Source: Trichuris trichiura
Lineage: Eukaryota; Nematoda; Enoplea; Trichinellida; Trichuridae
Direction of reading: 5' to 3'
Length of the DNA stretch: 64,000 nt
Assembly (NCBI GenBank): GCA_037903355.1
Contig: JBAJFE010000062.1
Span: forward strand, 682,001 to 746,000
Both the position numbers and the translations under genes were made by a program. Shown here one piece after another: positions 768 through 36,352 of this stretch. Within the stretch, counting starts at the first letter, position 1. Each line of letters opens with the position of its first letter. The notes beneath the pieces were generated by a model. It was not told where the DNA came from and did not search any database. It saw only the letters and a program-made list of their open reading frames with translations.

Positions 768-3700
768 ATGATGGTCGGCGCACATTGCATTCTACTGTTG
801 TTTTTCATTTTGCTACCAGCTCAGAAAGCAAATAATTATGTACATATTACGCAGTAGGCGCATGTTAGCACTTGAATGGAATTTCGTTTGAATTTAGGAA
901 GTTCATGTCATCTATCCGAAGGCTTCCAACCGCGAACCTCATAAGGAGAGGATTTATTCGCAAAATCAGCCCAGAAGCCCAGAAAATGAAGAGCTGACAA
1001 GATCCTTGACGACCGATTTTGGCGATATCATTCCTCGCGTTGAGCACCTAGCGTCTAACAAACAAAAGGTGGAATGGCAAAAAGAAAAGAGAGATGAAGC
1101 AGCAAAGAACGTTCTCTACTCGTTCCTAAAATTTTACTTTACCCGTGGGTCAGATTATTCCTTTGATAAGGTGATTGTTGGGGCAAAATGCAACATCTCT
1201 GGAGACGAAGGCGCTATACTCCACATGAAAGTTAAGAAAAGAGAAGATTGCAAAAAGGTAAGCATCAGGACAACGTCAAAACTAGCACCCCTGAAAATGA
1301 GTAATCGTTGTTGGTATTCTTCTGTAGTAGTTGTTCGAGGCCAATGGCTGAACTAACTTTACATATCATTTAACCGAAATTAAGTCAAATGCCCCTCAAA
1401 TGCTAAATGCTTACATCTCAAGTCAGGTTTGCAATTAGTACATGCAGAATTAAAAGACTCTGGTAAAATCAGCTGATATCATAGTCAGCCGTAATTCGTG
1501 TTATAAACACGCAAACACAGCCAAGTTTTTGAGATTACTGCTATGCTCAACTTGTAGATAAAGCATCGTTGTCTGCTATCAAAGCAATAGCAGATGAATC
1601 GCAATCTTCTTTTTGATCATCCAAAGGCCATTAACAATTTTGCAAAAACGTTTCCTCTGAAGCTCTGACAAATGTCCACGTTCCATTTCCTACTGAGTTG
1701 TTAACCGAAGACATATTGCCCAGGCGTTAAAGCTCAGTGCAGAACATGGCAGTAACAATTCCAGAAGACGTCAGAATAAAACGAATGACTATTTGTAGAC
1801 CGTACCGTATGTCAACAGATTAAATAAGAAATTTAAAATAAAGCTGTTCCAGCGCATCCCACTTTCAACATTTTATTCGGGGACAGATTCTTCGGAAAGG
1901 GCACATAGGCCTACTGTGCATCTATAAACATTTTTCGTATAAGCAGTTACTATCAACTAAACAGCCACTACGCATTTCGTTGCTGAAAACAGTCAAACTT
2001 TTAACACAGGTTGTTAGAAGCGAAATAACGTTTCTGTTGCAGAAGTTTATATGGTCCACCTGCAAACCAGTTAACGCAACGAATGTTTACTGCTCATGGG
2101 TTGGATTTCTCCGAGGAGAAAAGCACAAGCAGATGCTTGGTGCTGTTTGCTATGCTTTACCAGAGATAAGTCCAGAAGTAAGAGAATTCTTTTTCCGCCC
2201 TCTAAACGTCTAACCTCCAGTATAACACCTGACAAAATGAGTGTCTAAACCATTTAATTTGCTAACAAATTGTTAAGCTCAATTTGTATAACGCTGCTTG
2301 CCTTCATGCGTTCAGTTGCATTTGCATGGCAGATAAGTAGGTTTGCGTTCGCTTTTAGCAAATAAAAATAATAAGAAAGACCTGGCTGACGAGATGGTTG
2401 GTTATTTAATGTAGCTTAAACCACCTTAAGCGAGTCTGTGAAAACCTTTTGCAAGGACGCAGACAAGTCAGTGGTATTGGTGACTTCGAAAAAGCTGACA
2501 TTTTATTTTTTAACCTCAGCAACACATTCGTAGCGCTGACGTACAAGCACAGCCCAGCAATAACCAAAAGGGGGAGAAAAGAAGTTACTCCAAATGCTCT
2601 ACGTCTGCTAACGGTCCGCACCAAAGCAGGCAGACGTCACCCCACCTTGTGTTAAACTTGAAACGTGCTTCCAGGCACAAAGCTACCATTGTACGTGTCC
2701 CAGAAATGATTTCACGTAATAATGCTGTTTCTTTCCCGAAACAAAAATTAGCTAGAGCAAAACTGAACCAGTTCTGGGTCCTCTTAAGTATGTAGACAAA
2801 AGTGATCGAGGGATCTTTTCGACGTCAGAGCAGTAGGAGTTTAACCAAGCTGCCCCCAATTTTTTCATTTCTAATTGTAAATTCAATATTATTTTCCGAA
2901 GTTTACCATAGCGTGTACGCAACTCAAATTGGAAAATTAGGCGTAACCCTATTCAGCGCTGCCAATGTTTGCTTGACTAAACCCACTTTTCCGACAGGAC
3001 GAAATGATATTAGCACAACTGGACTTGTGCCATGAATGGAACTATGCTAATACCGGGGTAAGTATCTAACGGACGTAGATTAACAGCATGATAAGTTGCG
3101 CTCATTGCAGTACTACCGATTGGTCCTGCCTTGGCAACTAATTTCATGGGATACAGATTTTATCTTGTACTACCCACCTACGACGGACCTTAAACGTGAT
3201 AACTTATAAACCTGTAATTTAAGTACAATTGCGATTTTTCAGATCTTCAATTCATACATGGAAAAACGAAGAAAGACGAGGAGACACATGTAAACCCCGA
3301 GCGCAGGACAGGTATCGCTGGACAGGGAATATGGAAAAACCTTGGTGAAAATCAAATGGATATTCCTATCTTTCTGAGGTCTAATAACATCTTTTTTCTT
3401 TTTTCCTCTCCTTCGTAACAGGCTTTTTAATTTCTTTTTTGAAAAAATCTTTTACTGTTTTTAACCTCTTTTTTCATATAACGTTTATTTTATAATGAAA
3501 AACTTTATTACGAGTAGGTTCCCGTTTTTATGTAGAAAAAATTCCGGAGCTTTCGGGTCAGTCGAGACCCGTCATCAGCGGACTTAAGTTGTAAATATCT
3601 ATTGTAATATATTTACAACTTAAGACCGCTGATGACGGGCCTCGATTGACCCGAAAGCACCGGAGTTTTTTCTACATAAAAACGGGAACCTATCCGTAAT

Positions 3701-5913
3701 AAAGTTTTCATTACGTAAACATACGGTCCCGTAGCAAAAAACCACGTCTTCAACGTTTATTTTAATCTTTTATGCAGCGGTATTTTCAGCCCGTTCTTTA
3801 TTAAAGTTTATTGTATAAACGTTTAACGCGGAGGTTTCAGGCCTCACCGTAGCCCGTCATCAGCGCAATTTGTGCTGCCCGTCAGGTTGGTCATCATGAT
3901 TGCAAGCTGCTCCATCCGACTGCTTAAACGTTTATACGATAAACGCTAATTAAAAAACGGGCTGAAAATATCGCTACATAAAAGATTAGAACAAAATTTC
4001 TAAACGCCCGTTAGAAGAAAAGAAAAAATATAGCGCTTATTGTTATAAACGTTGCTTACAGAGCTTTCGGGTCCTACCTTGAGCGAGAGGGGTGTCCGCC
4101 GTGCATAATATCTTAACTTTTCTGTCAGGTTCGATTACAAAGCGTGTGACCATATGGGACCTTGGGAGCTAAATTCACGTGCCTACATAACTCCAATTTG
4201 TTATATTATAATTCAGTTTGTTACTCAAATTTAAAGGGCAACGCATCATGTAATCCCATGGAGAATAAAGTAGAACGGCAATGCTTATTAAAATTAGTAC
4301 TGATCATCCTAAATAATTCTCAGCTAGATTAGCTCAACGCTTATGGAATCAGAATTAGCAGTCTGAACAAATTAACGCGTATTTGAAATATCTTTACTCT
4401 ACGTGCAGACTTCATTTGGTGCTTTAAATGTTTTTTGCAACTGCTGATTGAACAGCACACATGGAAAAGTGATACGCCAAATGGCTTTGCACCAAATTTT
4501 GCGGGACAGCCCTTCTGCTATTTCTGCAGTCGTTTTGACTGTTGCGCAATCAACTCGCCTCATCATAATACACAACAAATTTTCACCATACTGACAAAAT
4601 GAATACTTCAGTGGAGGTTGCAGCCTCAAATTATGAATTAAATGCTCTCTGGGAACAGAAGACTAAAGATGAATGATTAAAAGCAAAAGTAACTCACTGC
4701 AAGCATAAAAGCAAGGATGTAGAACATCTTGAACTCCGTTTTAGAACTGAAAGCTATGAAATATAATGGCTGAATAGTTAACTATTCCAAAGCCAAAAAA
4801 TCTCAACGATCCTGCCTGTTCCCCAGAAACACATTTTCGTATTAAACATCATTGACGACCTTAACAAATCTGGTGCCTTTGAAAAAATTCAGCATACAAA
4901 GCAATGCAAGCTCAGTATTAACGGACCTTACAATCAAAATAGGGTGGCGATCGATAGTATAGCAAAGTTTCATTAAAATAAAACAAATGGACAACGGTGC
5001 AAATAGGAGATAACTCGAAAAAAACAGCTCGATTTGGCGAGAATTCGTCTTTGAGCAAGCGCGGCTTACTACTACTGTGGGACAGCTTGTCTGAAAAATT
5101 CAAATTACATACTTTGTGAAATACAAGGTAAGCATAAATGAACTTTTGCAGAAAGTACAATGGCACACGGCAGATCATGGTTCGTTTTGGCTATGAAGAC
5201 ATAAAAGTGACAGGTCCATTAGCAATGGTAAGCAAAAGCAAAGTTAGCTCGTCAGTCGTAAAGACTCTTATAGTTTTACCGAAAGCCTAAAAGCAAAGAA
5301 GAGCTTAGCAAATGGAATCAAACATCCGCAGAAGACTATTTTTACGCATTGGTGGAATCATCATACAAAGAAAAGTGCACTATGGATAAATTCTTAGCAG
5401 ATATGAAAGGAAAACGAAAGGTGCAGGAACGACCGTTTGGACTTGCACTCATTTCTATTGTTTCAGATCTTCAAATCATACTTTTCTCACCCTGAAGAGA
5501 CAGACAATGCGTGGGTAAAGGCTAGAGTTTACATGCTGATAATCCCTGAAACATCGTGTTTGTACAACCTGGACCTAGACGCCAATGCGAACTATTTAGG
5601 CTTTCAATGGAAAACCTATAATGATTCAACACTCCTTGCCGTTGAGAATGTAGTCAAGACCGTGTTCACTGATCAAGAAACGCAATTGAGAGTAACGGCC
5701 GGAAATTACTTCTCAGCCTCCAGATACTTAGCATACTTCGTAGCCGCAGCAGTGGCAGTAACCATTCTTTTGGGTGGGTTGGCCGCAATTGTTCCTTCTA
5801 TGATTGCACTCGGTATACCAGTAGTTCTCCTCACTCTTGCTGCCATCATACGTGCAGCTTACCTACGGAAATGGATTTTCCTACACCAGCCCATAAAAAT
5901 GTGTGATAAGTGA
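768..5913 (+). CDS. Paralog A: secreted cystatin-like/NUDT9-like pseudoenzyme with C-terminal membrane segments
   Basis: Exons: 768-827, 970-1257, 2043-2177, 2998-3057, 3111-3195, 3243-3378, 5152-5227, 5274-5420, 5467-5913; about 477 residues. Residues 1-20 are a signal peptide. Residues about 55-160 are cystatin-like: an AAKNV helix, a VIVG strand at 88-91, and cysteines 114, 123, 133 and 152 placed as in type 2 cystatins. Residues about 182-395 match NUDT9: LYYPP, RRTGIAGQG at 230-238, TDNAW at 341-345 and W-x-x-YND. The Nudix box region (GPLAM then FYRKPKS, 276-287) has none of the catalytic glutamates, so hydrolysis is unlikely. Hydrophobic segments lie at about 416-438 and 445-461. The intron after exon 1 begins GC rather than GT. 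AATAAA (5916-5921) follows the stop at once. Structure and homology are read by eye; function is unknown. Confidence 0.75.
3493..3713. repeat. Foldback element FB1 (inverted repeat, ~221 bp)
   Basis: The arms run from TAATGAAAAACTTTATTACG to its reverse complement and meet at an AT-rich centre near 3600-3610. Each arm carries the CTGATGAC...GAAAGC stem-loop (3549-3578 on -, 3629-3658 on +). The same family recurs at 48665-48877 (FB7). It lies in the intron of paralog A between coding exons 6 and 7. No open frame is present, so it looks like a non-autonomous mobile element. Confidence 0.85.
3762..3988. repeat. Foldback element FB2 (inverted repeat, ~227 bp)
   Basis: The outer arms (TAATCTTTTATG and its complement) and inner arms (TTATTGTATAAACGTTTAA and its complement) flank an asymmetric centre. 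The centre contains a single CTGATGAC...GAAAC stem-loop on the - strand (3834-3863). It sits about 50 bp after FB1 in the same intron and differs from it in arm sequence, so the two share the core motif but not the arms. Confidence 0.75.
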
Positions 5914-5921
5914 TTAATAAA

Positions 5922-9970: not shown

Positions 9971-9971
9971 A

Positions 9972-10071
9972 TTGTTTGTTCAAATAACCACAACAGACAC
10001 AGCAAAGGTAAATTGTGGGTGTATAAAATTGCCAAAAAAAATAATAAGAGTTCAGCAATCCAATTGTCGAA
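9972..10071 (+). promoter_or_regulatory. Core promoter of paralog B
   Basis: TATAAAA at 10022-10028 is exactly 50 nt before the ATG at 10072. The upstream block TTGTTTGTTCAAATAACC, then CAGCAAAGGTAAA, matches that of paralog A closely. Confidence 0.65.
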
Positions 10072-13000
10072 ATGAAGCTTGGTGCGCACTACATATTACT
10101 CCTACTGTTCGTTTTGCCCTCAGCTTCGAAGGTAATGATTACACACGTGTAGCATAATAGGCGCGCGTTTCAGCATTTCAGTAAAATTCCGGTAGAGTTG
10201 GGAAGTTTATGCGAGCGCTTTCGCAAGTTGATTATTTGCAGAGGCTTAGTCCAAGTCAAGAAAAGGAGCTCGCACAAACTCTGAAAGATGGTTTTGGTGA
10301 GTTCCTTCCACCTTTAGAGCGGCCGACATGTCATGAGAAAGGATTGAAATGGGATGATCAAAAGAAAGAAAAGGCTGCAAGAAACGTTTTCAATACACTG
10401 GCAAAGTCATTTAACCTTAAAGCAGAATATGCTTTTCATAAGCTTCACGTTGGGGTAATTTGCAATGTTTCCGGAGAACATAGAGCCATACTGCTTATGA
10501 AAATTAAAAGAACTGTAGCTTGCTCAAAGGTAAGCACTGCGATTCTGCTAAGGCCATTAATTAGTAAGATGAATAGTTTCTCCTTTCTTCAGAATTCTTT
10601 TCGCGGCTTGGCCAGCTAAGGGTTAAATATTTGACTTGAAGTCACATTTAACTTATACGAAGTTTTTAGAATTTCCTTACCAAGTTATTGGCTAAACAAA
10701 AATATTAGATCAAATGAATCGCCAAAGTCAAGTATGGAACAGTGTTAATATTCACTATTATTTTAGCACAATTTCAAAAGCTATTCAGGCATATAGTTGA
10801 ACAGAGTGTAAGTGTTACTGGCAGTGTATGAAGTGCGGGCACCCTACAGAATGCCCAGGCATTACATAGAACTCATAGGGTTTTTAAGCAAAGTATAACA
10901 TGTCCATTTTTGTTAAAATATACTGCATACAATGCCTAGGAACTATACAGAATGCCAAAAAATAATTAGGTAAAGTGTGAATGACATACTGGCGGTGGAG
11001 ACGTTTATGCTCCTGCCACATAAAAGCCCAAGAACCTAGAATGACGACACGCACAGGGCAAAGCGCGCTGAAATTATTGCTACATTGTACAGCCAAATAA
11101 CCTTCTTAAATAACGGTAACTTCGATTCGCTTTTGTCGATTTCTGGATCAAGCGTCTTTTGAAATGCTCACTCTCGAGTTACGACACATTATACTTACAA
11201 TGGAGCTTTTCATAATTGATCTTCTGATTCACGGGTTCAGCCTGTTTGATGTATCTGTAAGCAAACTTCAAAGTGCCCTACCAACGAACAGATGAGCAAA
11301 TTGTTAGAGAAAATACATAACACTTTTGATACCGTATGTTTCGGAACCGCTCTTGTTCCGTCGTCAGCAGTATGAGGCAGCTCCCTATACTCCCTCATAC
11401 TGCTGACGACGGAACAAGAGCGGTTCCGAAACACACGGTATCAAAAGTGTTTTGTATTTTCTCTAACAATTTGCTCATCTATTCGTTGGTAGGGCACTTT
11501 GAAGTTTAGTTATAGATACATCAAACAGGCCAAACCCGTGATGTCAGAAGATCAACTATGAAACAACCCAAGCCCGTTAAAATACATTCTGTCTTTCAAT
11601 ACAATGGAGTCATGATAACATATACTTATTCCTGCTGATGGCAGCAGGCAAGAATCTCCGCAAACGTGACAATAAAACGCATGTGTACGAAACGTTCACC
11701 GCGTAAGAATTGCAAAATCTAAAGCTTACAAGGGAAAACCCCTGCGGCATCTAGTTTCAAATAGTGATGTAGACAATGCGGACTAGTAAACACGGCTGGA
11801 GTTCCACACTTTCCACAACCGCCGGATTAAGTTATTAACATCCCCACGGTGGCCATGAAAAATTGTGCATTCATTTTCTAAGAGCCGTTTAACTTTCTCA
11901 AAAAAATATGGAAGGCTGCCTATTGGAGATTGCTTAGCACTTCAGTTCTAGGGCATCTTCCAGTCTTCGTGCGAGATGAAAATCCAAAAGGACGTATTTT
12001 GCTCTTGGATTGGAACTCTTGAAAATGAAAATCAAAAGAAGATAATTGGAGCGGCTTGTTATCCGCAGGGAGCGATGCCACCGGAAGTAAGAAAAAAGCC
12101 TCTTTTCGAACCTTCAAAAAGGCATAGGTTTTGGCAGGAGCGAAATAGCGCACAAGACACTCAACATTTTATAAATTTTTACTTCACATTTTTTAGGCAA
12201 TTACTTAGTTAAATGTTCAGTTGCACTGCACGGAAGTAAAAAGCAAAGAAACTAGAAATATCATGTGTTCCAGTCGGCATAGCTCGCTTTGGTTTAAACA
12301 ACTTTGTCTGACTTATGGTAATAGAATAGATAAATTAAGAGTAAAGTTAGAGCAAGTAATCAACATTACATTCCTGCATGACAGCGCTCCTCAATACTCG
12401 ACCTACCATGACAAAATAAGATCTATTCCATTCACCGAACTGTTCTGGCGCTTAACAGAATAGCTCTCTATTTTAGGAGGAAACGAAATTGGCAGACATA
12501 GACTTGTGCAGAGAATGGATGTTTGGAAGTACAGGAGTAAGCGCATCTCGCGAAAGTTAATGAATAAATTCAGAAAATTGGCTTTTTCTAGGTCCACCGT
12601 TTGGTAATTCCGTCGCAGGTGTCTACATGGAATACAAATTTTCTTATATATTATCCACCTGCAACAGGTGATTATTTATAAATTTGTGCATCATTTTAAC
12701 TGAAGTAATTTAGATCAGCATTTTATGAATTCCGTGTTCCGAGAGGCTGGTAAGAAGCATGTGAATCCCGAACGCAGAACAGGACTTGTTGGTCAGGGCC
12801 CGTGGAAAAACCTGGGTGAAAATCGAATGGACATTCCAATCCTTATCAGGTAAATAGGTTTTATCAGGCTTGTCCCAATGATGCTACATGACGTCAGCTA
12901 TAGGAAGCGCCACATTGAAGGTTGAAACACCAGACCTCAGTGTAGGAGTCATAACTCACAGCCAGTGAGTGACAATGTTAGCAGCTACTCAAAATTAGTA

Positions 13001-14656
13001 ATGCGATCATATATATATGGAATCCACGGATAACGAGGGCCGACTGTATGTATATACATAACAGAACCACCTACTGGAAACAGAACCAGGTTTCTGTCTC
13101 AGGGCTCCCATCAGGAAACAACGCAAACTTTAGACAGTTTTGTCCTCCATTACGATTCAGTTCATTTCTTCAAAGTTTCTTTTTGTGACTGGTAGTACAG
13201 CAGATTAGAAAAACCGAATTTTTAGTGGGCTTCGCAATAGATTTCACGACGTCTTTCTGCACTTCTGATGATCAGTTAAAACGTTTCACTCACAAACGGT
13301 TGCACCTATAACATGTCATTACTTTTCGCTTTGTCAAGTGCACCATTTCAATAAAAGCAACTGCTTCAAGTTATCGGCAAACACTTTCCCGGTAGAAGTG
13401 AATAAAACGGATAGGGGGACGGTGAATTGACAGAGTGGCGGCTATAAGCGCCCTGTTCAGTGTATTTAAAACTGTCATTCTGAACTAATAATGCTAAAAG
13501 ATAGAAACTCTGTGGTGAACTCTTCTCGCCTAAAACATTTAGGAGACGAACGTTGGTAATTAAGCGGCACTGACCCAGTTAACGCATTCAGATCGTTTGG
13601 AATAGACTAGCCTCGATTAAAAGAAAGTAATAATCACCACTGTTATAATTAGAATACAGTAACAATCCGTTCTTTAAGCAAACTTTATTGTAATAAAATT
13701 ACTGTGCAACCCAGCAAAAAAAACTGAAAATATCTGTCGAGAAAATATCCGCCTTTCTTAATGACCGTTCGCCTGCCACCTAGCTAATTCGCATTTCTAA
13801 TGGCTACGACATGTCCAAGCAGCTCGCACAACTGCCTACAGCATACATCTATAATTTGAGTTTTGCAGAAGTTACAAAGGTGTAAGGCAAATTATGGTTA
13901 TCAAGAAGAATTCTAGCTACGAAGTAACAACAACCGTCCGTGGAACGATATATCTGAATGGTCCTGCAGCAATGGTTAGAAAGAACGAAAATGTTTTTCA
14001 TTACTAGACAAACCTGTTTCAGTTTTACCGAAAACCTAGAAGCGGCAATGACCTTTCCGGACAGACCGAAACTACTGCAGAAGAATATTTCCATTCGCTG
14101 CTGGAATCGTCATCTGGGTGGAAATGTTCCAGGGAAAAATTAGCAAATGAAATGAAAACGAAACGCAAGGTATAGGATGTTAACTAGCAGTTCAGACTGT
14201 CACTTATTTTTGTCACTTTAGATTTTCAATTCATACCTTTCACACCCTTACGAGACCGATAATGCGTGGGTAAAGGCCAAAGTGTACATCATAATAGTCC
14301 CTAAGGACTCCTGTTTGTACAACATGAATTTAAAAGCCCCTGAAAATCATTTGGATTATCAGTGGAAGTCATATAATGACAGCACGCTCCGTAGCCTCGA
14401 GAGTGTGGTTAACACTGCATTCGATGAGAAGCAATCGAAAGTAATAATGGCTGGAAGCTATTTATCTCCCACAAAATATATACTGTATTTCATAATTTCT
14501 GGATTCATTGTGACCCTCATTCTGATTGGTGTCGCAATAGGAGTTTCCAAATTTATTGCACTCGCTATACCATTTGCTCTCATTGCCGTGGCAGCTTTCA
14601 TAGCTACCGCTTATGTCAAGAAATGGTTTCATAAATCTCACGATATAAATTGCTAG
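10072..14656 (+). CDS. Paralog B: secreted cystatin-like/NUDT9-like pseudoenzyme with C-terminal membrane segments
   Basis: Exons: 10072-10131, 10242-10529, 11952-12086, 12477-12536, 12592-12667, 12714-12849, 13869-13974, 14023-14169, 14222-14656; about 480 residues. Domain order matches paralog A: signal peptide (1-20), cystatin-like region with the strand LHVG and four spaced cysteines, then the NUDT9-like part with PERRTGLVGQG, PYETDNAW and W-K-S-YND. The region equivalent to the Nudix box reads GPAAM then FYRKPRSG, without catalytic acids. The seventh coding exon is 30 nt longer than in A, C and D, adding about ten residues (EVTTTVRGTI region) just before GPAAM. A 46-nt phase-1 intron splits the NUDT9-like domain (12668-12713). 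The product ends ...DINC. AATAAA lies at 14665-14670. The exon 3 acceptor (TTCTAG) is less certain than the others. Confidence 0.75.
11208..11563. repeat. Foldback element FB3 (near-perfect inverted repeat, ~356 bp)
   Basis: The arms of about 165 bp are nearly identical (TTTCATAATTGATCTTCTGA versus TTTCATAGTTGATCTTCTGA when complemented) and meet at about 11375-11395. Each arm carries a CTGACGAC-GGAAC...GTTCC-GAAAC stem-loop (11338-11367 on -, 11403-11432 on +). It lies in the intron of paralog B between exons 2 and 3. High arm identity suggests a young insertion. Confidence 0.85.
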
Positions 14657-14904
14657 ACGTTAAAAATAAATCCTACTTTTTCAGTTGGCAAGCTGAAAAT
14701 GCAAGGCTACAACCAGTTGCCTAAAACCACAAGCCAATACTTATTCTATTGATTAAATATGTATGTTAATAAAATACACACATATGTATCTCCTATAACT
14801 GTTGTTTCGCTTTACTGAATTTCGCTATAATTGCGGCACGGCGCTCACAAAGTTGACTGTATGAAATGGCTTAGGATTCAAACCTCATAGGTGCTGTCAA
14901 CTGT

Positions 14905-15700
14905 AAACGTCATAAAGAGATGAATGGCCTGTTCGCGGAATCGGTTCTAGAGCGAAGAAAATGAGGAACTGGCAAACATTTAGCGACAGGGTTTGGTGAT
15001 TTCATTCCTCGCGTTGAGGACCCGGCGCATATGAAATAAAAAGTAAAAGGGGAAAAACAAAGAGAGCAGAGGCAGCACGTAACATTCTCTACTCAGTTTT
15101 AAAATTTTACTTTACCTATCCATCAGGTTACTCCTTTGATAAGGTGCTTGTTGAGGCGAAATGTAACATCTCAGAAGGGACTATGTTCCATATGAGAATT
15201 TTTATAAATGTAATATGCAGATAAGCAGACATTGTGAGAGCGTCAAAGTTAGTTCTCCTGAAGCCTGTTATTATTCTTCTACAATAGCTGTTCAAGGTCA
15301 ATGGTTGAACTAAGTTTATGTATTACTTACCTGAAATCCAATCAAATAACTTTCGAATGCTAAATGGATATCCATTAGGCCCAATGGACATTTGCTAAGC
15401 CGAGAGTCAAAAGTAAAAGATTAGTAAAATAGCTTGACATTACAGCCACTCGTAATGTGTCCTAAAAATCTAAACTTCTACGGGTTAGGCTTTTGAAGCT
15501 ATCGTTACACTCAGCTTGCCTTTAAAGCAGTGCTGTCTGTTATCAAAGCAACAGCAGCAGAATGATAATTTTTTTATTCGCTCAATGGCTATTAACAATT
15601 TCTGCAAAAATGTTTGTTTTGAAGTTTGGCAAATCTCCACTCTCCATTTCCTACTGATACATTAACTAAAATTGCCATTTCTGCGCACTTGTGAAACAAT
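14905..15700 (+). pseudogene. Decayed partial paralog (exon 2 and flanking intron)
   Basis: About 14990-15230 is closely related to coding exon 2 of paralog A (GATTTCATTCCTCGCGTTGA is shared almost exactly), but an in-frame TAA follows GCGCATATGAAA and more frame breaks come after. Similarity to A's intron 2 continues to about 15700 (CCATTTCCTACTGA, AATGGCTATTAACAATTT). No signal-peptide exon, promoter or downstream exons are seen. It looks like a partial duplication of the 5' half of paralog A. Confidence 0.7.
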
Positions 15701-23511: not shown

Positions 23512-23525
23512 AAGTCACTATTAAA

Positions 23526-24320: not shown

Positions 24321-24329
24321 ATGGTGAGT

Positions 24330-25440: not shown

Positions 25441-26440
25441 AACTAGGTGCAGTGCATTAGTCCCTTCACCTGTTTTCTGCCTTACATAAGAAAATTACAG
25501 GCACTATCAACTTGTCTGTACCTTAGCACCTATCGATGACGACGCAAACAGACACCTTCCAAAGGCTATGATTTTCATTACCGTGCGTACGAGCAGGAAG
25601 TAAACTAATTAGACTCTTCTACCGCACTGAGCCGTTGTGAAATTTCGCACGTTATGTTATTCCAAGCCTATTGTACTGCTGAGGTTTTATTATTTTCGCT
25701 TCATCATAAATAGTATGAAAGCATATCACGAAAACATCACGGATTCATTAATTATCAAGGTTTGAAGTCGCACGTTTGCTTAAATTGACCACTGACGACC
25801 AAAAGATGCCAAAACCTGAAAGCTCCGGTGTTGATGATTTTCGTTCCCATCAGGGGACATGTCAGAAGTAATTTCTATATACCAAGAAAAATACACTGGA
25901 TGAACTACTTTTGATAAAGGAAAATCTTTACCCGCAACACAGAATGTTGCACGGCGCTCTATACAATAACCGTATACGAAATCCTGTTTGTCCGCGCTCT
26001 GCCCGCATGGCAGTTAACGCTAGAGTTACCATTTTGACTCCAAATTAGTGAACCCCCGTTCTCTGCGATAAGCAACAGAAAACCACAAAAAGATGGTGAA
26101 ATATGGGTAACTGTTACAAGTTTTTTTTGTCAAGTGTTTATCGAGATGGTCTTCTTAATCTAGCAACTTGACTTGCACGAGACCGACATGCGAATTAGCA
26201 CAACGAGACCCAATGCTCCCCTTAGATGCAGTCCCGTGATAATCACGCTTAAGTTATACGAAAGTAACAGCTGAGCGATCAACGCCTTTGCGGTTCTATA
26301 AAATAGAATTGTATCAATTACCTTTAACACAAAAGACTGCTAAGACAGCACCTCAGTAACAGGATAATTATGGAAAAGCATGCACTCTGTTCATTGCAAA
26401 AGCCAACCTTTAAGTTAATCGATTTAAACTTACCGAGTAA
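25441..26440. other. Spacer with one hammerhead-like stem-loop
   Basis: The only structured feature seen is a CTGACGAC...CTGAAAGCTCCGG unit at 25792-25823 (+). The rest shows no gene. Confidence 0.45.
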
Positions 26441-26452
26441 CTTCATAAATAG

Positions 26453-27535
26453 AAGTTCTTTAACCCTTTCTGCAAGTCCAACAGGAAACGAATGTATATT
26501 GCTCATAAACTGAAATTGCCAAAATGAAGTTCCTGGGACGTTGGATGATATGTTCTATCAGGCAAAAGCAATATCAGAGGAGGTAAGTGCGTAGCGCTTT
26601 TTCTAGGCATTGAAACAGAAAGATAACATTCTTCAACTAAAATAGAGATCATTTTAAGCGAGCGCCAAATCCATAATAAGTATCAAACATTGAGCTTACC
26701 TTTAAATGCGTACCTGCATCAAGTTAACAATAAAAAATAACAATACTCGTCGACGTTCAGCAAATTCGGTAGAAACCTGAAGGGGATAACATTTCTTATC
26801 GGAGATGAAAACGTACTGGCAGTAATGGATGAAGGTACGGTAATACTCAGGCGAGCAGCTAACTGCGATTAACGCAAAGCACTATAAATTCATTGTTCTG
26901 CCCAGATCTACTAGTTATCATGGAACACAGATTTCCTTTTTTATTATCTACTCACAGCGGCTCCTCAAGGTGCTTATTCATAAGGCCATGATTCCATTGA
27001 AAACTGTTCGTATCACTTATGCCATCAAGCGTTGGCTGCCACTGAAGAGGAAATTCCTAAAAAACATTTAAATTTAGAAGGCAGAAAACTTCTTCGTTTA
27101 TAAGGGCTCTTGAAAAAGTCAGAAAAAACAAATGGAGATTTCATTTTCTTGCAGGTTCATATTCCATTCATTTACTTATATGGCTTTAAACTCTCGTATT
27201 TATTCGGTAAATGTGGATAACTTCACTTTATACATCCTAAGCTAATTTATGACTTCAGCGCGAATGAAAAGTATTCTGTAACTTTAAAGATCACTAAGTA
27301 CGACTGCACGCAGGTACGAGGCGGCAGTCGATTAACGTCAGAAGACAACACAAGACAAGGTGTTTCAAGAAAAAAATTCTTGAAAATAAAGAAATCAGAA
27401 AATAGAGTACGTTATTGCGGGTTCATGCGATCATTCATTACCGTCACCTTAGATTTGCCAAAGTATCTCCCACTCCCTCATGATACACAATGCATAGGTC
27501 AATGCTGTCATATAGATAAAAAAAGATTGCGAACA
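26453..27535 (+). pseudogene. Decayed paralog related to paralog D
   Basis: Remnants are collinear with D. An exon 3-like piece (26453-26582; CCCTTTCTGCAAGTC and CTATCAGGCAAAA are shared) keeps a GTAAGT donor but its frame is broken. An exon 4-like trace lies near 26790-26850, and exon 5-like pieces at about 26900-27160 (TCATGGAACACAGATTT is shared) carry stops. A last-exon piece (27460-27535; CCGTCACCTTAGATTT, GTCAATGCTGTC) is out of frame. Exons 1, 2, 7 and 8 are not found. Similarity to D's 3' flank resumes near 28060 (AACATGGGCGAAAATCAAAG). It is a partial, deleted tandem copy. Confidence 0.65.
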
Positions 27536-30485
27536 AATCATGTTTGAATTATTAGAAACCGAACGTCAAACAGAATTATATGCACTTTCCTTGGAAAAAA
27601 TACCGTAATCCCACGCTTCAAGGTATACATTATGTTTTAACTTCGGCAATTATCAGTTCAATTTCATAACTAGGATGGCAGCAGTAAGTGTAGTACCCTG
27701 TATAACTGCATCATTTCCATGCCGTAGTTCCTATCACTAGCCATCGTAACTTCAGCAGGTGTTTTACTTATTACTTACGCATGAAAATGGGAGCTCGTTT
27801 GTAAAAGTTTGGATGCCTGCTAAAGTTCATCGATAACGCATATTTTTATACCAGTTAGCTTTACATATGCCATTGCAATCCATTCAAAGCTGGACAGAAC
27901 AAATGTTCCTCCTACTGAGCAAAAATTTATAACTTTCATTTCGGCTATTTAGTTTCATTCAACCTGCTAGAAACCACGTGACCTCAGCTCAAAAGGAAGA
28001 TAATAGCACGTTCCTTTGTGTCCGTGAGCATATCTTCTTTGGAAGGTGGTAACCATTCAACATGGGCGAAAATCAAAGAAGTATAAACAGCTTTTAGATA
28101 TACAGGTGCCTCCAACACACGATGCTCCAACCTACGATGGATTCAGATTTACAATGGGTTCGGTAGCGAAACACATTCACTACGAAATTTATATTTTATT
28201 AATATCCTAATATATATAGAAGATGGCTACGGGGAGAGATCTGCGAAAGTCCATCGCCCAATTCAAAAGATTTTGCTAGTTACAAAGAAATTTACAGAGG
28301 AATACAGAAGAGTACAAAAACAAAACTTGACGTCTTCCTAACACTGCCTACTACTGGAACACTGTCAGTCGTCACAGGGGTGCCTTATGGCTGCTACTGG
28401 ATTAAGCAGGGAAGGAACTTCATTGGGATTCCGCTATAAAATTACTATCTTCTTGCAAGCATCAGTCAGGTGCATCAAACGGATCAGTGGACTGGCGTAT
28501 GTGTATGCACATGAATGAAGTTGCAGACATGGAGCCTTATGTTATTAACTCCAAAACATAACTGCAATGTCATGAAGCCGAGCCAAGTTGGCAATTCTCA
28601 CCGGACTGGGTTCTCACGAAGGTCAGAACTTTATTTACGGTAAGGATCCCGTTAATTACTTGAAACATAAGTCAGAGCTTTCAGGTGCTGCATCTTCACC
28701 CGTCGTCAGCGATGTAATTAAGAAAGATAACCTATCCTTGCACTGCCAGCACTACACCACCAGCAGCTCAAAATAAAACGCAATACAGAGAGTGGTTACT
28801 ATGTAACCAAGTCGGTAACACAAAAAAGTTAGTGAAATCCAGAAAGGCGAATACTGTATGAACTAACAAGACGCAACGCGCTGGATGAGCTTTCGCTAGC
28901 CTCATTATCATGGTAAGTTAACGTAAACATCTTCCCTTGCACGGAAATGCAACATGTGATGAAAAGCAGGGGGCGCAGGATAAAGGGCAGCACAAAGCGC
29001 TATGTTTGAACCAGCTAATGTCACCAAGCCACCAGGTCCATATTCTTTGCTGGCCCTTCACCTAAAGATTACACTATGACGATGACGTACGAAAAGGTTT
29101 GTGCCACAGTTCATATGTGTCAGGAATGGAATTCAAATTCCATCCCTTTTATAGTACTCTCTGCTCAGTCCACAGTAAAGTGGGAGTAAAATATCACTCA
29201 ATAAGTTCAACTTTTAAAAACGTATTTAGATTAAATGAGCTGAAGCTTCTAGAATGATAACAAGTAGTCGTAAGAGGAAGAAATAGAAGTGCATTGAAAA
29301 TAAAGCGCTTTTTACGAGTGTCTGAAACTGCATAAGGGCATTCCAGAAGTCTGATCCGTGAAATTTTTTAAACTTAAATCTGTGAAGCTTCCAGGAAACA
29401 TCCGTTCCATCTTCAGCGCATAAATAATGCTGAAGAGGGGGACAGATTTCACGGATAGCATTTTCGTAATATCGTTGCCCAAAAACTAAAATCGAAAACT
29501 GAACTTTATGACGAAATAACTAAGAAAAGAAACTTAGAAAGAAACTGCAAGGAAAAGTGAAAATTAAAATGAGACAGACAATTGTCTCCCGCCTAAATAT
29601 TTCTTGTTTTTACTTTCCCGTAAGTTCCTTTGCTGCGTTACGAATGCGTCGTTAACAAGAACCCAACAAGAAATGAACAGGCTGGTTCCCGTTAAAAGTA
29701 TACGTAAAGCAAAATCACCCGTTACGAAAAGTATAATATTATATTATGAAACCCACGGAACGTGAAGGTAGATAAGCCTCCGGTACCTGTAATCATAGCG
29801 TGTGAGAAGGTCGACGAAAATCACAAGAATAAAACAGAAAAACGAGAACAAAAAGGCGAAATCTGAGCACAAGTGAGCAATCAGTTTACTTTCAGTTACA
29901 TTTTTTACAGTTCACTTCGTATTACTTTGTTTTTCATTTACTCTTTAATCACTCCGCTAACTTATCAGCTCTATTTCTTTATATTTACGTTTATTTGCTT
30001 ATTATTTTTTACAACAACTTGTTTCACCTCACTATGTTATTTGAAGCCAATTTTACCACGTGATATTTTATTCTTTTCGCTTCCTTAGAGCTGGTATGGC
30101 AACTACTTTCAAAAGAATGAATTTTTCGCGCTTAAGCTCGCTTCGTCTCACATTCAAACTGTGTTAAGTTCCAAACCTAATGCCTCATTGACTGTTTATG
30201 ACGGGACAGCGTACATCCCGAAAGCTTCCAAGATAATCAGCTATCTTTACGACAGCTAAACGCTTTCGTTTCCGTGAAGACAAGAACAAACAAATATTAG
30301 CCATTACGCAGCTATGCTACTAATTTAATCCAATGAATGTTAATGAAAGTTTTTCATGTCACAATATGACGCAACAGCGGCAAAATAAGAACGTAAGAGA
30401 ATTCATAGTCAAAGTAAATTTCCCACATTCATTAGCTGTTACCGATCAGATGCACTGAGCGGGATTACTGAGCGTCAGTCTAAGT
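27536..30485. other. Spacer upstream of paralog D
   Basis: It contains 3'-flank homology to paralog D near 28060-28120, and hammerhead-like stem-loops at 28677-28709 (-), 29387-29416 (-, arms to about 29460) and 30192-30225 (+). No intact gene is seen. Confidence 0.45.
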
Positions 30486-30573
30486 GATAACAACGGACAG
30501 GAGGCAAAAGTAAACTATAGGTGTATAAAAGTGATAGAAAATCTATCAATAAATCGGTTATTGAATAGCTGAA
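30486..30573 (+). promoter_or_regulatory. Core promoter of paralog D
   Basis: TATAAAA at 30524-30530 is exactly 50 nt before the ATG at 30574. The GGAGGCAAAAGTAAACTATA block precedes it, as in the other copies. Confidence 0.65.
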
Positions 30574-33500
30574 ATGAAGCTCAATCTGTGTTGGATTCTA
30601 CCGCTACTGTTTGCTTTGTTGGCAGCTAGTAAGGTAACTGCTCATATCCTCGTTGCGTATTAGGTGCATTCTAATCAGATTGTTACGGAAAGCTACGCAA
30701 CTGGAACGAACATGTTTCAGGATTCTTCTTCGGAGGGTCAAAGCTCAAGCGAAGAAAATAAAAATGTAATGGAAGATCTGGAGGCCAATTTTGCAGACAT
30801 ATTTCCTTCCCGTCCAAGTCGGTTATGCCAAAGCCAATCAACGGGCTGGAGCCAAGAGAAGAAGGAAAAAGCGGCAAAGAACGTTTTCCAAGTTCTGCTG
30901 ACAGCGGTGGATCAATCGTCAGAATTTAACTTCAAAAAGTTGATTGTTGGAGCAAAGTGCAGAACCCATAATCAAACAGAAACCGTCATACTGCACATGA
31001 AAGTCAAAAGAACAGTAACCACAAAATGCCCGCTGGTAGGCGTTGTAAATCTGTTAACCAAAGTACCCTTATAAGAACGCATGAGCAAATATCACTTTTC
31101 TACATTATCCTTGATAAGTGTGGTGGGGACTAAGAGCTAAACAAGTGCAGTTGGACTACCAGGCATTCTGTCAATCATGAAACTTTAGCCTCATTTAGTT
31201 TATTGAAACTAGTCTTTAAGAAGTGTTCGGAAGGGTAAGCAAGTCTTCCACGATGCCTGCCCATCACCCTGCGCAAGAAGTATTTCAGTCATACTCGTAA
31301 GTGGAAATTGTTCCTTGACTAAAGTTGCTAAATTGCTTTGCTCTTCAGACATGACTTCTACTCAAGGGTTAGAAAAAAGGTGTATAATGTTAGCGCTTGT
31401 TTCACTTAATCCAGCGGGCTAAATTTGTCTCGCTAGAACAATCTGTACATACAGAAATGACTCAAAGACAGAGGCCTAAAAAACAGCTCAAATAATCACA
31501 ACCCTTCTAATTCTCTATTCAACAATTTGATTTCTGTTGATTCATGATCAGTAGCATGCCAGTAGCGGCACAGCAAAGTTCAGCCAGCGAGAATCCGACC
31601 ATACGGTCCGCTTTATCCGCTTAGTGTTGCCTCTGTGTACTAATTAAAGGTTGCCTATACATGCTTGGCCAAGCTCTGCGCTCATCATTACAAATTTCGG
31701 ATCTTGTCCTTCAGACGCCCCACCGTTTCAGAAATGCAGGTTCCTTTCTGGCAAGCATGCCCTTAACTTGTTCTGCCTTTACTGCAGAGCATGCCAATTA
31801 CCCTTTCTTGTTCTTACCCAAACCTAAGCCAAGGCATAAACCTTATGTTTATGCTTAGGCTTAGGCTAGGGCAGGACAAGATGGCCGGCAAACCTACAGT
31901 ATAACGGGGGGCGCCTGAGAGACAAGACCTCAAATTTCCTTTGTCATCTCGAATAAGCTTCATTATATAGCAAAATGTTTTAACTGACTACTTCATAATC
32001 AAGCCAAAGTATTATAAGGTATGGAAAGTTTTCAGAATCACTTCGTCAAAATTTTGATCGCCAAATACTTTTATCTTTATCTTCAAACGCCTATATCATT
32101 TTTCATCCTCAAGCATCTGCATCACGTTCGACCAAATTTATTTGTGGTTGAGAGTGGTGATGCTACCAGCGTGTAACTTATATCCCGCCATTCGCGTCGT
32201 CAGTACAGACCACCCACCATTCTTCGTAATAAAAATGGGCCGTACATGATGCAGATGATTAAAGATGAAAGTTTTCCCTGTTTACGACACAACTAATTTT
32301 TAATAGTAATATTTCCTTAACAAAATGTCCTGCTGAAATCTTCAAATGTGAGGTTAAGAATCAAAGAAGCTTCACGTGTTAGCAGGTGAAGTGCTAATGG
32401 TTAATTTCTATTATTGTTTAACGCTTTTGTAAATGCACGCTGGGTTTTCCCCTTTTGAATAAAAGCGTATTGGGGCATCGTAGCTTCCTCAGCGATAAAT
32501 GTATCAGAAAAGCGATAGCATGACAATGAAGACTTTAAAGCGAGTAAACGATCACTGCCAGCTTAAAGCGAAGGATGCGAAAATTCTAATAGTCGGTCAT
32601 AATGCCTGTGTTCTCCCAACTGTATTCAGATTTGTTAATGCGACTTCCTTCCCCAAGTGTCTCATTCTCGTGACCACTGAGGGTACAGTGTTCTACACTC
32701 GTTTTCAGTCAAGGATTAGAGAGGAAATAGGAGGGAGCATTTAGTAACGAGTACGTACATTTTCATGGTCGATTTCATGTTTACGGTGACAACCCGTTTT
32801 CAGCCAATTTTTTGCCAGTTTTTTAACAATGTTTATTCCAGAGTTTCCAGGTCCACTTTTGTCGCATCATCAGCCACCTGTCATGTAGTCTGCTTATGAC
32901 GGGTCAAGAGTGGGCATAGATGATTCATTATCTTTGTTTGTTACATCGTTGACCATGGGTGAAGGTACACTACCTTCATTTAAGTCTAAACCTAAAAGTA
33001 TATCAATGTCGACATTGAACCAATGTTTAACCGAAGGATACACATGGGGAACTAACACTAACAAACCACCGACTCCGCGGTCCGATCTAGCATTAAGTCA
33101 GTTTCTCAACGTGGGCCCTGGGGCCCCCTGGGGGGCCCTGGAGGATAATGCGGCAGGACATTGTCCCAATAAACGGTGGGCCCTTACAAGGATTAGGGGG
33201 CTCTGACAAGGCCTAGGGGGCCCTGGTGGGCCCTGACAAAGCCTAGGGGAGCCCTGGGGCGAAAAAGGTTGAGAAACTATGCATTAAATGGATGGATTAG
33301 GTGTTTCGACTCACGATGAAACGCGTAGAACGAAATGCATTGTAAGTTAAGGAATCCTGTCTATAATGAAAGCTACTTTGACTAAACTTCCTTTCATAAA
33401 GAAATCCTACGGGGGATTGAAAATGTTGAAGGCGTTTCATTTGATGAAAGTTTACGAATCCCTGTTTAACCGCGTTCCAACTGCATGCCAGTCGAAGGTT

Positions 33501-36352
33501 AGGTTACCACTCTGATTCTAAACAAAGTGAAAGCCCACTCCATTGAGCACCAGCAGAAAAGCACAGAACCTAGATAGTGAAATGAAGGAAATTTCTTTGC
33601 CACATGTTCATCAAGATAACCTTAATGTTGTAACCTGTACGGTACAAAAAAAGTATATGCGTTAGTACAACGAGATTCGAACCCCTCCCTATTTGAGGGC
33701 GTAGTAATTACGCCTAGGTTTTATAAAAGCAATAACTGTGACTCGAATGACTCAGCGCTGCGCTAAAATGGAATCACACTTATTCGTTTATGAACTGAAA
33801 TCCATAAATGAATAATAAGATTATCTTCGTCAAAAGATGATTGCGGAAAATCATGCAATCACTTCATGCCAAAAGCGCGCGTTTTCTAGAACGAATGATT
33901 CAATTTGAACTTACCCAGTAACCTTACACCTTCTATTCGCAGAGTTTCTTCAACCCTTTCTGCAAGTCTACCGAAAAAAGGAATGTATATTGTACATGGA
34001 TTGGAATCCTCAAAAATGACATTCATGAGAAGACGCTGGGAGCTACGTGCTATCAGGCAAAAACGATATCAGAGCAGGTAAGAGAGCAGGGTTTCTTTTC
34101 GCACCTCTGAACGTTCAACCAGCGAATAGCACTAATCTAATGGAGCACCTGAAATGTGCTCCATCTCAGGAGAACACCAAATGTATTAATAAGTATCAAA
34201 CGTTGAGCTTACATTCGATGCCCGCTTGCGTCAACTTAATGGTAGAACGTAGCAGTGCTCATTCTCGTTCAATAAAAACTGTGGAAACTTGGCAGAAATA
34301 ACTGTTCTTGACGCAGGAAGAAAAGAAATTAGAAGCAATGAATATCTGCAACGAATGGAAGTACGGTAAAACTCATGTAAGCTTCTCACTGTGGTCAATG
34401 CAAAGTCCATAAATTAATTGCTCTGTGCAGCTTCACCGCATCTCAATACCAGATCAAGTGTCGTCATGGAACACAGATTTTCTCATCTATTATCCACCTA
34501 TAGCCGACCTACCAGGTGCTTATTCATACGCCCACTACACAACTAAAAATTATTTCGATTATTTAGGCCATCAAACATTAGCAGACATTGGAGAAAAAGC
34601 CGCTAAGAAATTTCGAAACCCAGAAGGCAGAAAGGGTCTTGCTGGACTGGGACTCCTGAAAAAATGGGGAAAAAATGATATGCACATTCCAGTTATTCTC
34701 AGGTTCGTATTTTGTCGACTCATTTACCGTGTTATGTTCCTGCATTTATTTGGTGAATGCAAACGACGCAGAGGTAAAGAGACAGCAAAGGACCTAAATT
34801 TATAGGCTTTAAGGTAATTTATGATTTCTGCGTGAATGAATAAGACACTGTGCGATTGCTTTCGATTCTTCAGAGATGGTGGAGCATGTCTTAAATAAGG
34901 TAGAGCGTTTAGAGGCTGAGCACACTAGGAAACCGGTCAACATAGACCGGTTGTTAATAAAGGGAAATAGCGGGCGTATGAGGCTAGGCTTACTGTAACA
35001 GCACGCGCGTGTACTTTACTTTCTTGTAAACGCTTTCCTAGAGAATTTTATGCACAGTCAAAACATAGTACGGTCATTCATACGGCATCATGTACAGTCA
35101 ATGCTTTTAATAGCTTTTTTCTCATGGTTTAACCATTCTTTCGGAAAAAGAGTTCATTTTGAACAGCGCTAATTTTTTTGGGCGCTGATTTTGGTTTAGC
35201 AGTTTCTGACGCCGTAAACATTACTATGACCAGTAATTTTAAAGGTTTTTGGAAATGCATTGATCAATGTAAACATTACAGCAAACTAGAAGTTGTTCCC
35301 AGCGAAGATCCTCTAACTGTCAAACAACAAAAGTAATCTCACGATAATAATACTGGCTCTATTAGCTTACAGCGGTAAACCGTAGTACTTATTAACTTAT
35401 ATTGATAATAATTTTATTAGTAATACAGTTGAGTGTTATATGAGCTTGTGAAAACCATGGGATTAGTAGCAATTCCTTCCTTGAAATGGTGATTCTCTTT
35501 TTGCTCAGTGAAGCAAATTTCAAGAACTTCGTTAACATTAAACGCTAGTTGTCTAGTGGGGCAGAATATTTGTCCTGTAAATACATAAATGCTATACGTT
35601 GCAGGTTTTACAAAGGCATGAGGCAAATATTGATTGCTACTAACCGTAACAAGGAGGAAATGTTAGGGCCTCTACCAATGGTGAGTAATCAATTTGAAAT
35701 TGCTCTCATCTCTCACTTCTTAACCTGCAGTTTTACCGGAAACCCACAAACAGTAGCGAGCTTCGTAAATGGAAGGAACCCTCAGTAGACGAATACTTTT
35801 ACTCGCTGCTTGAACGTGGGAAGAAGGCTGAGTGTTCCAAGGAAAAACTTTTAAAAATCGTGAAGCCTAAAACTAAAGTTTGTTATGGCCCTTACGTGCA
35901 ATCATTTATTACCGCCATTTTAGATTTTCAAGGGGTATCTTCCCCACCCTTATGAGACGGACAATGCATGGGTCAGTGCTGTCGTCTACATAATAAGTTC
36001 CGCAGAGGATACATGCCTCAGCTACTTGAACCTAGACGCCAAAGAGAATTACTTTAACTTTCGCTGGAATACATACAATGATTCTACTCTGCGAAGCGTT
36101 CAAAACATTGTCAACACTTTCTTCAACAAAAAGGAGTCAAAGAAAATAACAGCGGCGAGTTATAGAACGGTTGGGAATTATCTGTTCTATTTCACAACTG
36201 CGACTGCAGTAACCTGCGTAGCACTCGCTGTTATATTTACAAATACATACCCTTTGCTTATACCTGCAGCTATCATAGTTGTAGCAGCTATTTTGCTTCA
36301 GGTTTATGAAAAAAGATGGACTTTCATTCGTTCAAAACTGAATGTCTGCTGA
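30574..36352 (+). CDS. Paralog D: secreted cystatin-like/NUDT9-like pseudoenzyme with C-terminal membrane segments
   Basis: Exons: 30574-30633, 30721-31035, 33943-34077, 34317-34376, 34431-34515, 34567-34702, 35605-35680, 35731-35877, 35924-36352; about 480 residues. Exon 2 is longer than in A-C owing to a Ser/Glu-rich N-terminal extension. The cystatin-like part keeps KLIVGAKC and the NVYCTW and ATCYQ cysteines. The NUDT9-like part has IPDQVSSWNTDFLIYYPP, EGRKGLAGLG and YETDNAW. The Nudix box is replaced by GPLPM then FYRKPTNSSE. Two hydrophobic segments and a ...KLNVC end follow. The 51-nt intron 34516-34566 is a multiple of three without stops, so it could be retained in frame. Intron 2 (2.9 kb) holds a hAT-like MITE. 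AATAAA is at 36361-36366. Confidence 0.75.
33098..33280. mobile_element. hAT-like MITE (183 bp)
   Basis: The terminal inverted repeats are CAGTTTCTCAAC at the left and its near-complement GTTGAGAAACTA at the right. They are flanked by an 8-bp duplication with one mismatch (GCATTAAG at 33090-33097, GCATTAAA at 33281-33288). The interior is very GC-rich with repeated GGGCCCTGG units, unlike its surroundings. It has no coding capacity. The 8-bp target site and terminal sequence point to the hAT superfamily. Confidence 0.7.

What the first reader, a model, noticed from the sequence alone, without database searches (positions are those of the whole stretch)
768..36352. Tandem family of secreted cystatin-like plus NUDT9-like proteins with a membrane tail
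Four intact genes share a domain order I know from no described family: signal peptide, cystatin-like domain, NUDT9/TRPM2-NUDT9H-like domain, hydrophobic C-terminus. The NUDT9 link rests on RTG-x-x-G-x-G, TDNAW and W-x-x-YND/FND in the right order and spacing. The cystatin link rests on an amphipathic helix, an (L/V)IVG-like strand and four cysteines at type 2 positions. Placing an ADP-ribose-binding fold outside the cell suggests capture of extracellular or host nucleotides, or immune modulation; this is inference.
Basis: partly seen in the sequence, partly recalled or inferred. Interest (0 to 1): 0.92.

Follow-up and report, generated by a model that had tools for sequence, protein, structure and literature searches.

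The report
Whipworm cystatin-NUDT9 fusion gene family
A run of whipworm genes encodes predicted secreted proteins that join a worn-down protease-inhibitor-like half to a worn-down ADP-ribose-enzyme-like half and end in a greasy stretch; two close database relatives bear the name of a much-studied 53-kDa worm antigen of unknown function, so its shape may now be testable.

Summary
Four genes (A-D) share nine exons with identical phases; 31 of 32 introns are GT-AG. Published Trichuris protein models use the same joins from exon 2 on. The second half is related to NUDT9/TRPM2-NUDT9H: profile E 5e-15 to TRPM2 and 7e-9 to NUDT9. The first half is cystatin-like: two low-confidence models match cystatin structures there, two disulfide-type cysteine spacings fit, and its intron lies within two residues of that in four ordinary cystatin exons of this genome. 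Pfam's Cystatin and NUDIX models do not match.

The Nudix box is degraded in the nine proteins lined up, and the equivalents of two TRPM2 residues that contact ADP-ribose are replaced in 12 of 12, so hydrolysis or TRPM2-style capture is unlikely. Cystatin inhibitory motifs are missing too. Seven more loci in this genome have both halves.

The sequences are not orphans: T. trichiura records name two of them '53 kDa excretory', like a Trichinella antigen described as without homologue or known function. I could not reach the Trichinella sequence; that link rests on names.

The parts
768..5913 (+). gene A, 9 exons: 768-827, 970-1257, 2043-2177, 2998-3057, 3111-3195, 3243-3378, 5152-5227, 5274-5420, 5467-5913; 477 aa; intron 1 has a non-canonical GC donor in this model
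   Evidence: 97% identical to T. trichiura P0003 over 459 aa
10072..14656 (+). gene B, 9 exons: 10072-10131, 10242-10529, 11952-12086, 12477-12536, 12592-12667, 12714-12849, 13869-13974, 14023-14169, 14222-14656; 480 aa
   Evidence: 98% to T. trichiura P0004, 75% to T. suis P0005
18625..23511 (+). gene C, 9 exons: 18625-18684, 18798-19085, 20166-20294, 21624-21683, 21739-21823, 21874-22009, 22768-22843, 22893-23039, 23086-23511; 468 aa
   Evidence: 88% to the second part of T. trichiura P0001
30574..36352 (+). gene D, 9 exons: 30574-30633, 30721-31035, 33943-34077, 34317-34376, 34431-34515, 34567-34702, 35605-35680, 35731-35877, 35924-36352; 480 aa
   Evidence: 55-56% to T. suis P0006/P0007
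30721..34077 (+). cystatin-like half of gene D (exons 2-3; the same in A 970-2177, B 10242-12086, C 18798-20294)
   Evidence: fold matches; cysteine spacing; intron position
34317..36091 (+). NUDT9-like half of gene D, exons 4 to the first part of 9 (same order in A, B, C); end approximate; degraded Nudix box across the exon 7/8 junction
36179..36313 (+). hydrophobic tail of gene D (residues about 424-468; A 413-463, B 419-470, C 408-454); limits approximate
   Evidence: Kyte-Doolittle scan; two helices in the models of P0005
14974..15670 (+). partial duplicate of the exon-2 region of gene A, in the B-C gap
26349..27645 (+). decayed partial copy (matches to exons 3, 5, 8, 9)
42832..43338 (+). 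stray signal-peptide exon and weak exon-2-like stretch; remnant of another member

Best explanation
These are members of a Trichuris family of secreted, membrane-anchored pseudoenzymes. Supported here: an ancestral NUDT9-type ADP-ribose pyrophosphatase domain joined to a cystatin-fold domain and to a C-terminal hydrophobic stretch (probably a helical hairpin), multiplied in tandem under purifying selection; both donor domains have lost residues that define their activity. Inferred: the proteins enter the secretory route and are presented on the outer face of vesicles or membranes, held by the hairpin, with both globular domains outside, where they act as binding or immune-modulating surfaces rather than as a hydrolase or a cysteine-protease inhibitor. 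[quoted passage not shown]
For: Profile of the family against PDB sequences: TRPM2 E 5.1e-15, NUDT9 7.4e-9; T. muris P0008 alone reaches TRPM2 at 2.4e-10 and NUDT9 at 0.005. Fold search: Foldseek's best hits are TRPM2/NUDT9; of the 50 VIA rows shown, 13 and 19 lie in the cystatin range, 37 and 28 in the Nudix range, 3 in the tail. C3-C4 spacing is 19 in 12 of 12 proteins and C1-C2 spacing 8-9 in 9 of 12 (some of the 12 are near-duplicates, such as A/P0003 and B/P0004). Exon 2 ends in phase 0 two residues after the first disulfide cysteine in A-D; 4 of 4 ordinary cystatin exons inspected in this genome end in phase 0 four residues after theirs (donors placed by eye), and Trichinella MCD proteins four or five residues after (PMC2680962, passages). 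Nudix box lost and ADPR contacts replaced. Masses of A-D, signal peptide included, are 53.3-55.0 kDa. P0003 and P0004 are named '53 kDa excretory'. In the table passages of PMC10604534, Trichinella spiralis vesicles contain four 'Nudt9' proteins (58.9, 57.2, 54.5, 26.8 kDa), an 'ndx-6' (51 kDa) and two '53 kDa' antigens (listed at 41.2 and 34 kDa).
Against: Pfam Cystatin and NUDIX do not match any member scanned. Both structure models are weak (mean pLDDT 54, pTM 0.36). No Foldseek match reached E 0.001 (best 2.1e-3) and the 50 Foldseek rows listed hold no cystatin. All VIA Z are below 8, which the tool warns can be a common arrangement. The sequence profile of the cystatin half found no cystatin. 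T. muris P0008 has only a short hydrophobic stretch (about 410-433) and lacks C1 and C2. There are no expression, secretion or membrane data for these genes. No Trichinella sequence was reached in 3 protein searches. The published reverse primer for the Trichinella 53-kDa gene (PMC4932752, passage), translated by eye, gives a last few residues without the C-terminal Cys of the Trichuris proteins; weak evidence, but against a shared tail.
Confidence: 0.6

Rival explanations
1. The NUDT9-like half still binds ADP-ribose or a related nucleotide and mops up extracellular NAD+/ADP-ribose signals of the host.
For: The NP-x-x-R-x-G-x-x-G-x-G and TDNAW segments are kept in most members. Human TRPM2 NUDT9-H binds without hydrolysing (PMC4974056, passages).
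Against: The residues reported to contact ADPR in human TRPM2 NUDT9-H (D1431, R1433; PMC6759353, passage) map to H (Y in P0006, P0007) and to Y, E, D or H in 12 of 12 proteins (mapping by the equal-length 1414-1447 stretch and the TRPM2 alignment). Y1485 was not mapped.
Confidence: 0.15
2. The family is an active secreted Nudix hydrolase with a rearranged active site.
For: The last acidic position of the NUDT9 REFGEE motif aligns with E or D in all nine proteins listed (read by eye). Trichinella TsNd is reported to have a Nudix motif and one transmembrane segment near its C-terminus (PMC4287505, passages).
Against: In the alignment to NUDT9 the GG pair, the GX5E glutamate and the RE pair are not kept; TRPM2 NUDT9-H, which lacks one conserved glutamate of the box, is inactive (PMC4974056, passages).
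Confidence: 0.08
3. The hydrophobic hairpin inserts into host cell membranes, so the protein is a soluble secreted molecule that becomes a membrane (perhaps pore-making) protein on contact.
For: Two predicted helices joined by a short turn, H418-440 and H445-476 in the second model, at the very C-terminus.
Against: Only a hydropathy and low-confidence model argument; the three fold rows on the tail are unrelated proteins.
Confidence: 0.12
4. The two halves are separate genes that happen to alternate.
For: P0001 and P0002 are database models that run across or skip genes, so gene prediction here is error-prone. P0003 and P0004 lack the exon-1 signal peptide.
Against: The same order with the same phases in A-D, both halves in the same order at seven further loci, and full-length single models in T. 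suis (P0005, P0007, P0009, P0010) and T. muris (P0008).
Confidence: 0.05

Closest known systems
Mitochondrial NUDT9 (1q33/1qvj) and the NUDT9-H domain of TRPM2
   Same: Collinear sequence similarity: TRPM2 from ..rlviPsqvssW.. (part of the N-terminal cap) and NUDT9 through the Nudix core to W-x-x-ND (E 5e-15, 7e-9); Nudix fold match.
   Different: Predicted secreted, fused to a cystatin-like domain and a hydrophobic tail; Nudix box and TRPM2 ADPR contacts lost.
Type 2 cystatins; Trichinella multi-cystatin-like domain proteins (MCD-1/SML-2)
   Same: Helix plus four-strand model, two disulfide-type cysteine spacings, intron just after the first disulfide cysteine (PMC2680962, passages).
   Different: No PW in 12 of 12; the Q of QxVxG is not kept; fused to a NUDT9-like half. 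I did not have the MCD sequence.
Trichinella 53-kDa excretory/secretory antigen (TsP53/Tpp53)
   Same: Name given to T. trichiura P0003 and P0004 in the NCBI record; similar nominal mass.
   Different: Trichinella sequence not available here; it is described as having no homologue in GenBank and unknown function (PMC9813687, passages).
Trichinella secreted 'Nudt9'/TsNd proteins
   Same: NUDT9-like name, secreted or vesicle location, 51-59 kDa for four of the five listed, C-terminal transmembrane segment in TsNd.
   Different: TsNd is 415 aa, predicted without a signal peptide and reported with a Nudix motif; no cystatin half is mentioned in the passages seen.

Membership tests
NUDT9 / TRPM2 NUDT9-H | statistically significant sequence similarity over the NUDT9 domain | tested here: met
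   TRPM2 E 5.1e-15, NUDT9 7.4e-9 with profile A3; TRPM2 E 2.8e-13, NUDT9 2.1e-9 with A1
NUDT9 / TRPM2 NUDT9-H | Nudix fold | tested here: inconclusive
Active Nudix hydrolase | Nudix box GX5EX7REUXEEXGU (signature recalled) | tested here: not met
   GG pair, GX5E glutamate and RE pair not kept in the alignment to NUDT9 or in the nine proteins; Pfam NUDIX unmatched
TRPM2-type ADP-ribose binder | D1431 and R1433 equivalents (residues from PMC6759353, passage) | tested here: not met
   H/Y and Y/E/D/H in 12 of 12
Cystatin superfamily | alpha helix followed by a four-strand antiparallel sheet, cystatin fold | tested here: inconclusive
Type 2 cystatin | two disulfides with spacings of about 10 and 20 (spacings recalled) | tested here: met
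   C3-C4 19 in 12 of 12; C1-C2 8-9 in 9 of 12, 12 and 18 in P0007 and P0006, C1 and C2 absent in P0008; pairing itself not shown
Type 2 cystatin | intron just after the first disulfide cysteine, phase 0, as in this genome's cystatins | tested here: met
   two residues after in A-D against four residues after in 4 of 4 inspected exons, of 24 over the Pfam cut-off
Inhibitory cystatin | QxVxG and PW (motifs as named in PMC2680962) | tested here: not met
   PW 0 of 12; Q replaced by K or S, G kept (read by eye)
Inhibitory cystatin | N-terminal glycine | not tested
   no reliable alignment of the N-terminal segment
Inhibitory cystatin | match to Pfam Cystatin | tested here: not met
   0 of 9 members
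53-kDa excretory/secretory antigen family | sequence homology to TsP53 | not testable with these tools
   only the record names of P0003 and P0004; 3 protein searches listed no Trichinella sequence

The most novel reading that the evidence does not exclude
The Trichinella/Trichuris 53-kDa antigen, used for decades as an immunomodulator with no known relatives, is one branch of a Trichinellida family in which a mitochondrial-type NUDT9 was moved outside the cell, joined to a cystatin fold, disarmed at both active sites and displayed on vesicle membranes by a C-terminal hairpin, as a new kind of double pseudoenzyme immunomodulator.
Probability: 0.35. Interest if true: 0.82.

Novelty: new variant of a known kind. 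Interest (0 to 1): 0.64.

Why it matters
Trichinella 53-kDa protein is reported to shift macrophages to the M2 type and to lessen colitis, endotoxaemia and psoriasis in mice (PMC12451359 and PMC9813687, passages), yet it is described as lacking a homologue, a function and a known functional domain. If it belongs here, it can be cut at defined domain borders, and the questions 'does it bind nucleotides, does it inhibit proteases, does it sit on vesicles' become direct bench tests. It would also be an unusual case of a NUDT9-type fold predicted to work outside the cell.

Tried and rejected
Pfam scans of single exons, whole proteins and alignments gave only weak, sub-cut-off hits, NCBIfam likewise. 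A PDB sequence search with the cystatin half alone gave no cystatin, only LuxS at E 0.22 and eS25 at 1.1, so that half rests on fold, cysteines and intron position. The 50 Foldseek rows listed hold no cystatin; cystatins appear only in the VIA second look at Foldseek's top 1000. A regex hunt for an intact Nudix box in the stretches fetched of six NUDT9-half-only loci (contig 1 two, 19, 9 two, 33) found none that looked like one, but introns or unfetched parts could hide one. The viral structure library gave weak matches, many to viral Nudix proteins. I rejected 'separate genes' and 'pseudogene array' for A-D because of phases, selection and orthologues. A deeper alignment (14 rows instead of 7) did not improve the model. 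Searches for print; none listed a title on a cystatin-NUDT9 architecture; beyond listings I saw passages only, in the papers cited.
Full report
Source. Its genes A and B are 97-98% identical in protein to T. trichiura records, while C is 88% identical to part of another, so this is a whipworm of, or close to, the human-whipworm complex (inference).

Gene structure. Paralogue comparison placed nine exons per gene and a splice script gave four open frames of 477, 480, 468 and 480 aa with identical phases. 31 of 32 introns are GT-AG; the exception is intron 1 of gene A, modelled with GC-AG. The six pairs show dN/dS of 0.28-0.33 (dN 0.39-0.53, dS 1.16-1.63), indicating purifying selection although dS is near saturation. 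Published models share the joins from exon 2 on: P0003 (A), P0004 (B) and, with the signal peptide, T. suis P0005 (B-like). Some other models deviate: P0001 and P0002 fuse neighbours and P0007 carries an extra stretch. The T. suis locus tags M514_23673 (P0010, A-like) and M514_23675 (P0005, B-like) suggest that the tandem order is kept in that species (inference from tags).

Family size. Searches of the whole genome with P0005 and with exon 2 of gene C, and tblastn of the fetched loci, show seven further loci with both halves in the same order: six on contig 26 (L009, L010, L011, the L011/L012 overlap, L013, L014) and one spread over some 23 kb of contig 62 (L054, L055, L015), whose unity as one gene is the least certain. 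L013 shows a stop in its last exon and may be decayed. Six more loci (contig 1 two, 19, 9 two, 33) show only the NUDT9-like half in the stretches fetched; for three of them (contig 19 and contig 9 twice) about 3 kb or more upstream was included and gave no cystatin-half hit at E below 1, which is not conclusive, since in gene D exon 2 lies 3.7 kb from exon 5. Counts are lower bounds.

NUDT9 half. No Pfam or NCBIfam model fires above its cut-off. A profile of seven Trichuris proteins finds TRPM2 (6drj, E 5.1e-15; zebrafish 6d73, 5.4e-15), NUDT9 (1q33, 7.4e-9), a TRPM2-like channel 6co7 (1.7e-6) and human TRPM2 (3.8e-6) in the PDB sequence set; the four window proteins alone give 2.8e-13 and 2.1e-9. 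The NUDT9 alignment is collinear through RTG, the Nudix region and TDNAW to W-x-x-ND.

Active-site check. In the alignment NUDT9's IPGGMVDPGE...REFGEE faces GPlalfyrkp...etsaee of the profile. The proline is kept; the GG pair faces LA, AA, VA, LP or FP in the nine proteins, the GX5E glutamate faces the P of YRKP in most, and RE faces ET, QT, EP and the like. The last acidic position is E or D in all nine; the one before it is E, D, N or A. For ADP-ribose, D1431 and R1433 of human TRPM2 (PMC6759353, passage) map to H (Y in P0006 and P0007) and to Y, E, D or H in 12 of 12 proteins, by the equal-length stretch 1414-1447 and the TRPM2 alignment. TRPM2's own NUDT9-H domain is a precedent for a non-hydrolysing member (PMC4974056, passages).

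Cystatin half. The two AlphaFold models are poor overall (mean pLDDT 53.9 and 54.3), but residues 51-160 give one helix and four strands with block pLDDT 45-82. Foldseek gave no match at E 0.001 or better, and its 50 listed rows are Nudix or other proteins without a cystatin. The VIA second look at Foldseek's top 1000 shows 13 of 50 rows and 19 of 50 rows in this range; their titles name tarocystatin, cystatins C, D and E/M, egg-white cystatin, CRES, fetuin-B, histidine-rich glycoprotein N2, latexin, sialostatin and adhiron/affimer scaffolds (several recalled to be cystatin-like folds), except 5kuy and 8c12, whose titles do not name the fold. All Z are below 8. Independent support: the last two cysteines are 19 apart in 12 of 12 and the previous pair 8-9 apart in 9 of 12 (the 12 include near-duplicates). 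The genome also has 24 exon-level Pfam Cystatin hits over the cut-off elsewhere. I inspected four of the 24: each exon ends in phase 0 four residues after the first disulfide cysteine (donors placed by eye), whereas exon 2 of A-D ends in phase 0 two residues after it. Trichinella MCD proteins are reported with an intron four or five residues after it (PMC2680962, passages). A shared intron site is hard to explain by convergence, though it is one site only. Inhibitory motifs are missing: PW 0 of 12, Q of QxVxG replaced.

Ends. Exon 1 encodes 20 residues that look like a signal peptide; by the 19-residue hydropathy threshold A and D pass and B and C do not reach it, so secretion is inferred and no signal-peptide predictor was available. 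The C-terminus holds one long hydrophobic stretch (A, B, C) or overlapping stretches (D) of 45-52 residues, modelled in P0005 as two helices. The T. muris model P0008 has only about 24 such residues, by loss or by an incomplete model.

Known or new. NCBI names P0003 and P0004 '53 kDa excretory'. The Trichinella 53-kDa protein is described as lacking homologue, function and known functional domain (PMC9813687, passages). In the table passages of PMC10604534, Trichinella spiralis vesicles contain four 'Nudt9', one 'ndx-6' and two '53 kDa' proteins among the 53 recognised by infected-pig serum. TsNd has a C-terminal transmembrane segment but is reported with a Nudix motif and without a signal peptide (PMC4287505, passages). 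The published 53-kDa reverse primer (PMC4932752, passage), translated by eye, ends without the C-terminal Cys seen here; weak evidence against a shared tail. I could not compare sequences, so the link is a lead.

Verdict. The best reading is a secreted, membrane-held double pseudoenzyme family, probably the Trichuris side of the 53-kDa antigen story.

Noticed in passing
window 40010-41101 (-): 363-aa single-frame ORF with four Pfam Fn1_2 stretches (E 1.5e-37). 34 matching stretches genome-wide, itself included; three other full-length copies at 97-99% identity on the same contig at 607-674 kb, interleaved with the cystatin-NUDT9 family: an island of secreted-protein genes (secretion inferred).
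   Followed up: partly
window 46569-47975 (-), 49525-50361 (-), 50679-51449 (-): Long open frames with no Pfam match at E 1; not examined further.
   Followed up: no
G000 contigs 7, 11, 12 and others: 24 exon-level matches over the Pfam Cystatin cut-off, many in tandem on contigs 7, 11 and 12: an ordinary cystatin expansion in this whipworm.
   Followed up: partly
L049, L050 (contig 1), L051 (contig 19), L053 (contig 9), L052 (contig 33): A second NUDT9-like tier closer to NUDT9 in the RTG segment (NPLGRTGIAGRGYLPRWGP and similar); where the last exon was read it is followed by a hydrophobic stretch in most. L052 keeps DPR before TDDAW, unlike the window family, so an ADP-ribose-binding cousin may exist here. 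No Nudix box found by regex.
   Followed up: partly
window 14974-15670, 26349-27645, 42832-43338: Decayed or partial copies between and after the four genes, which suggests birth-and-death evolution of the array.
   Followed up: partly
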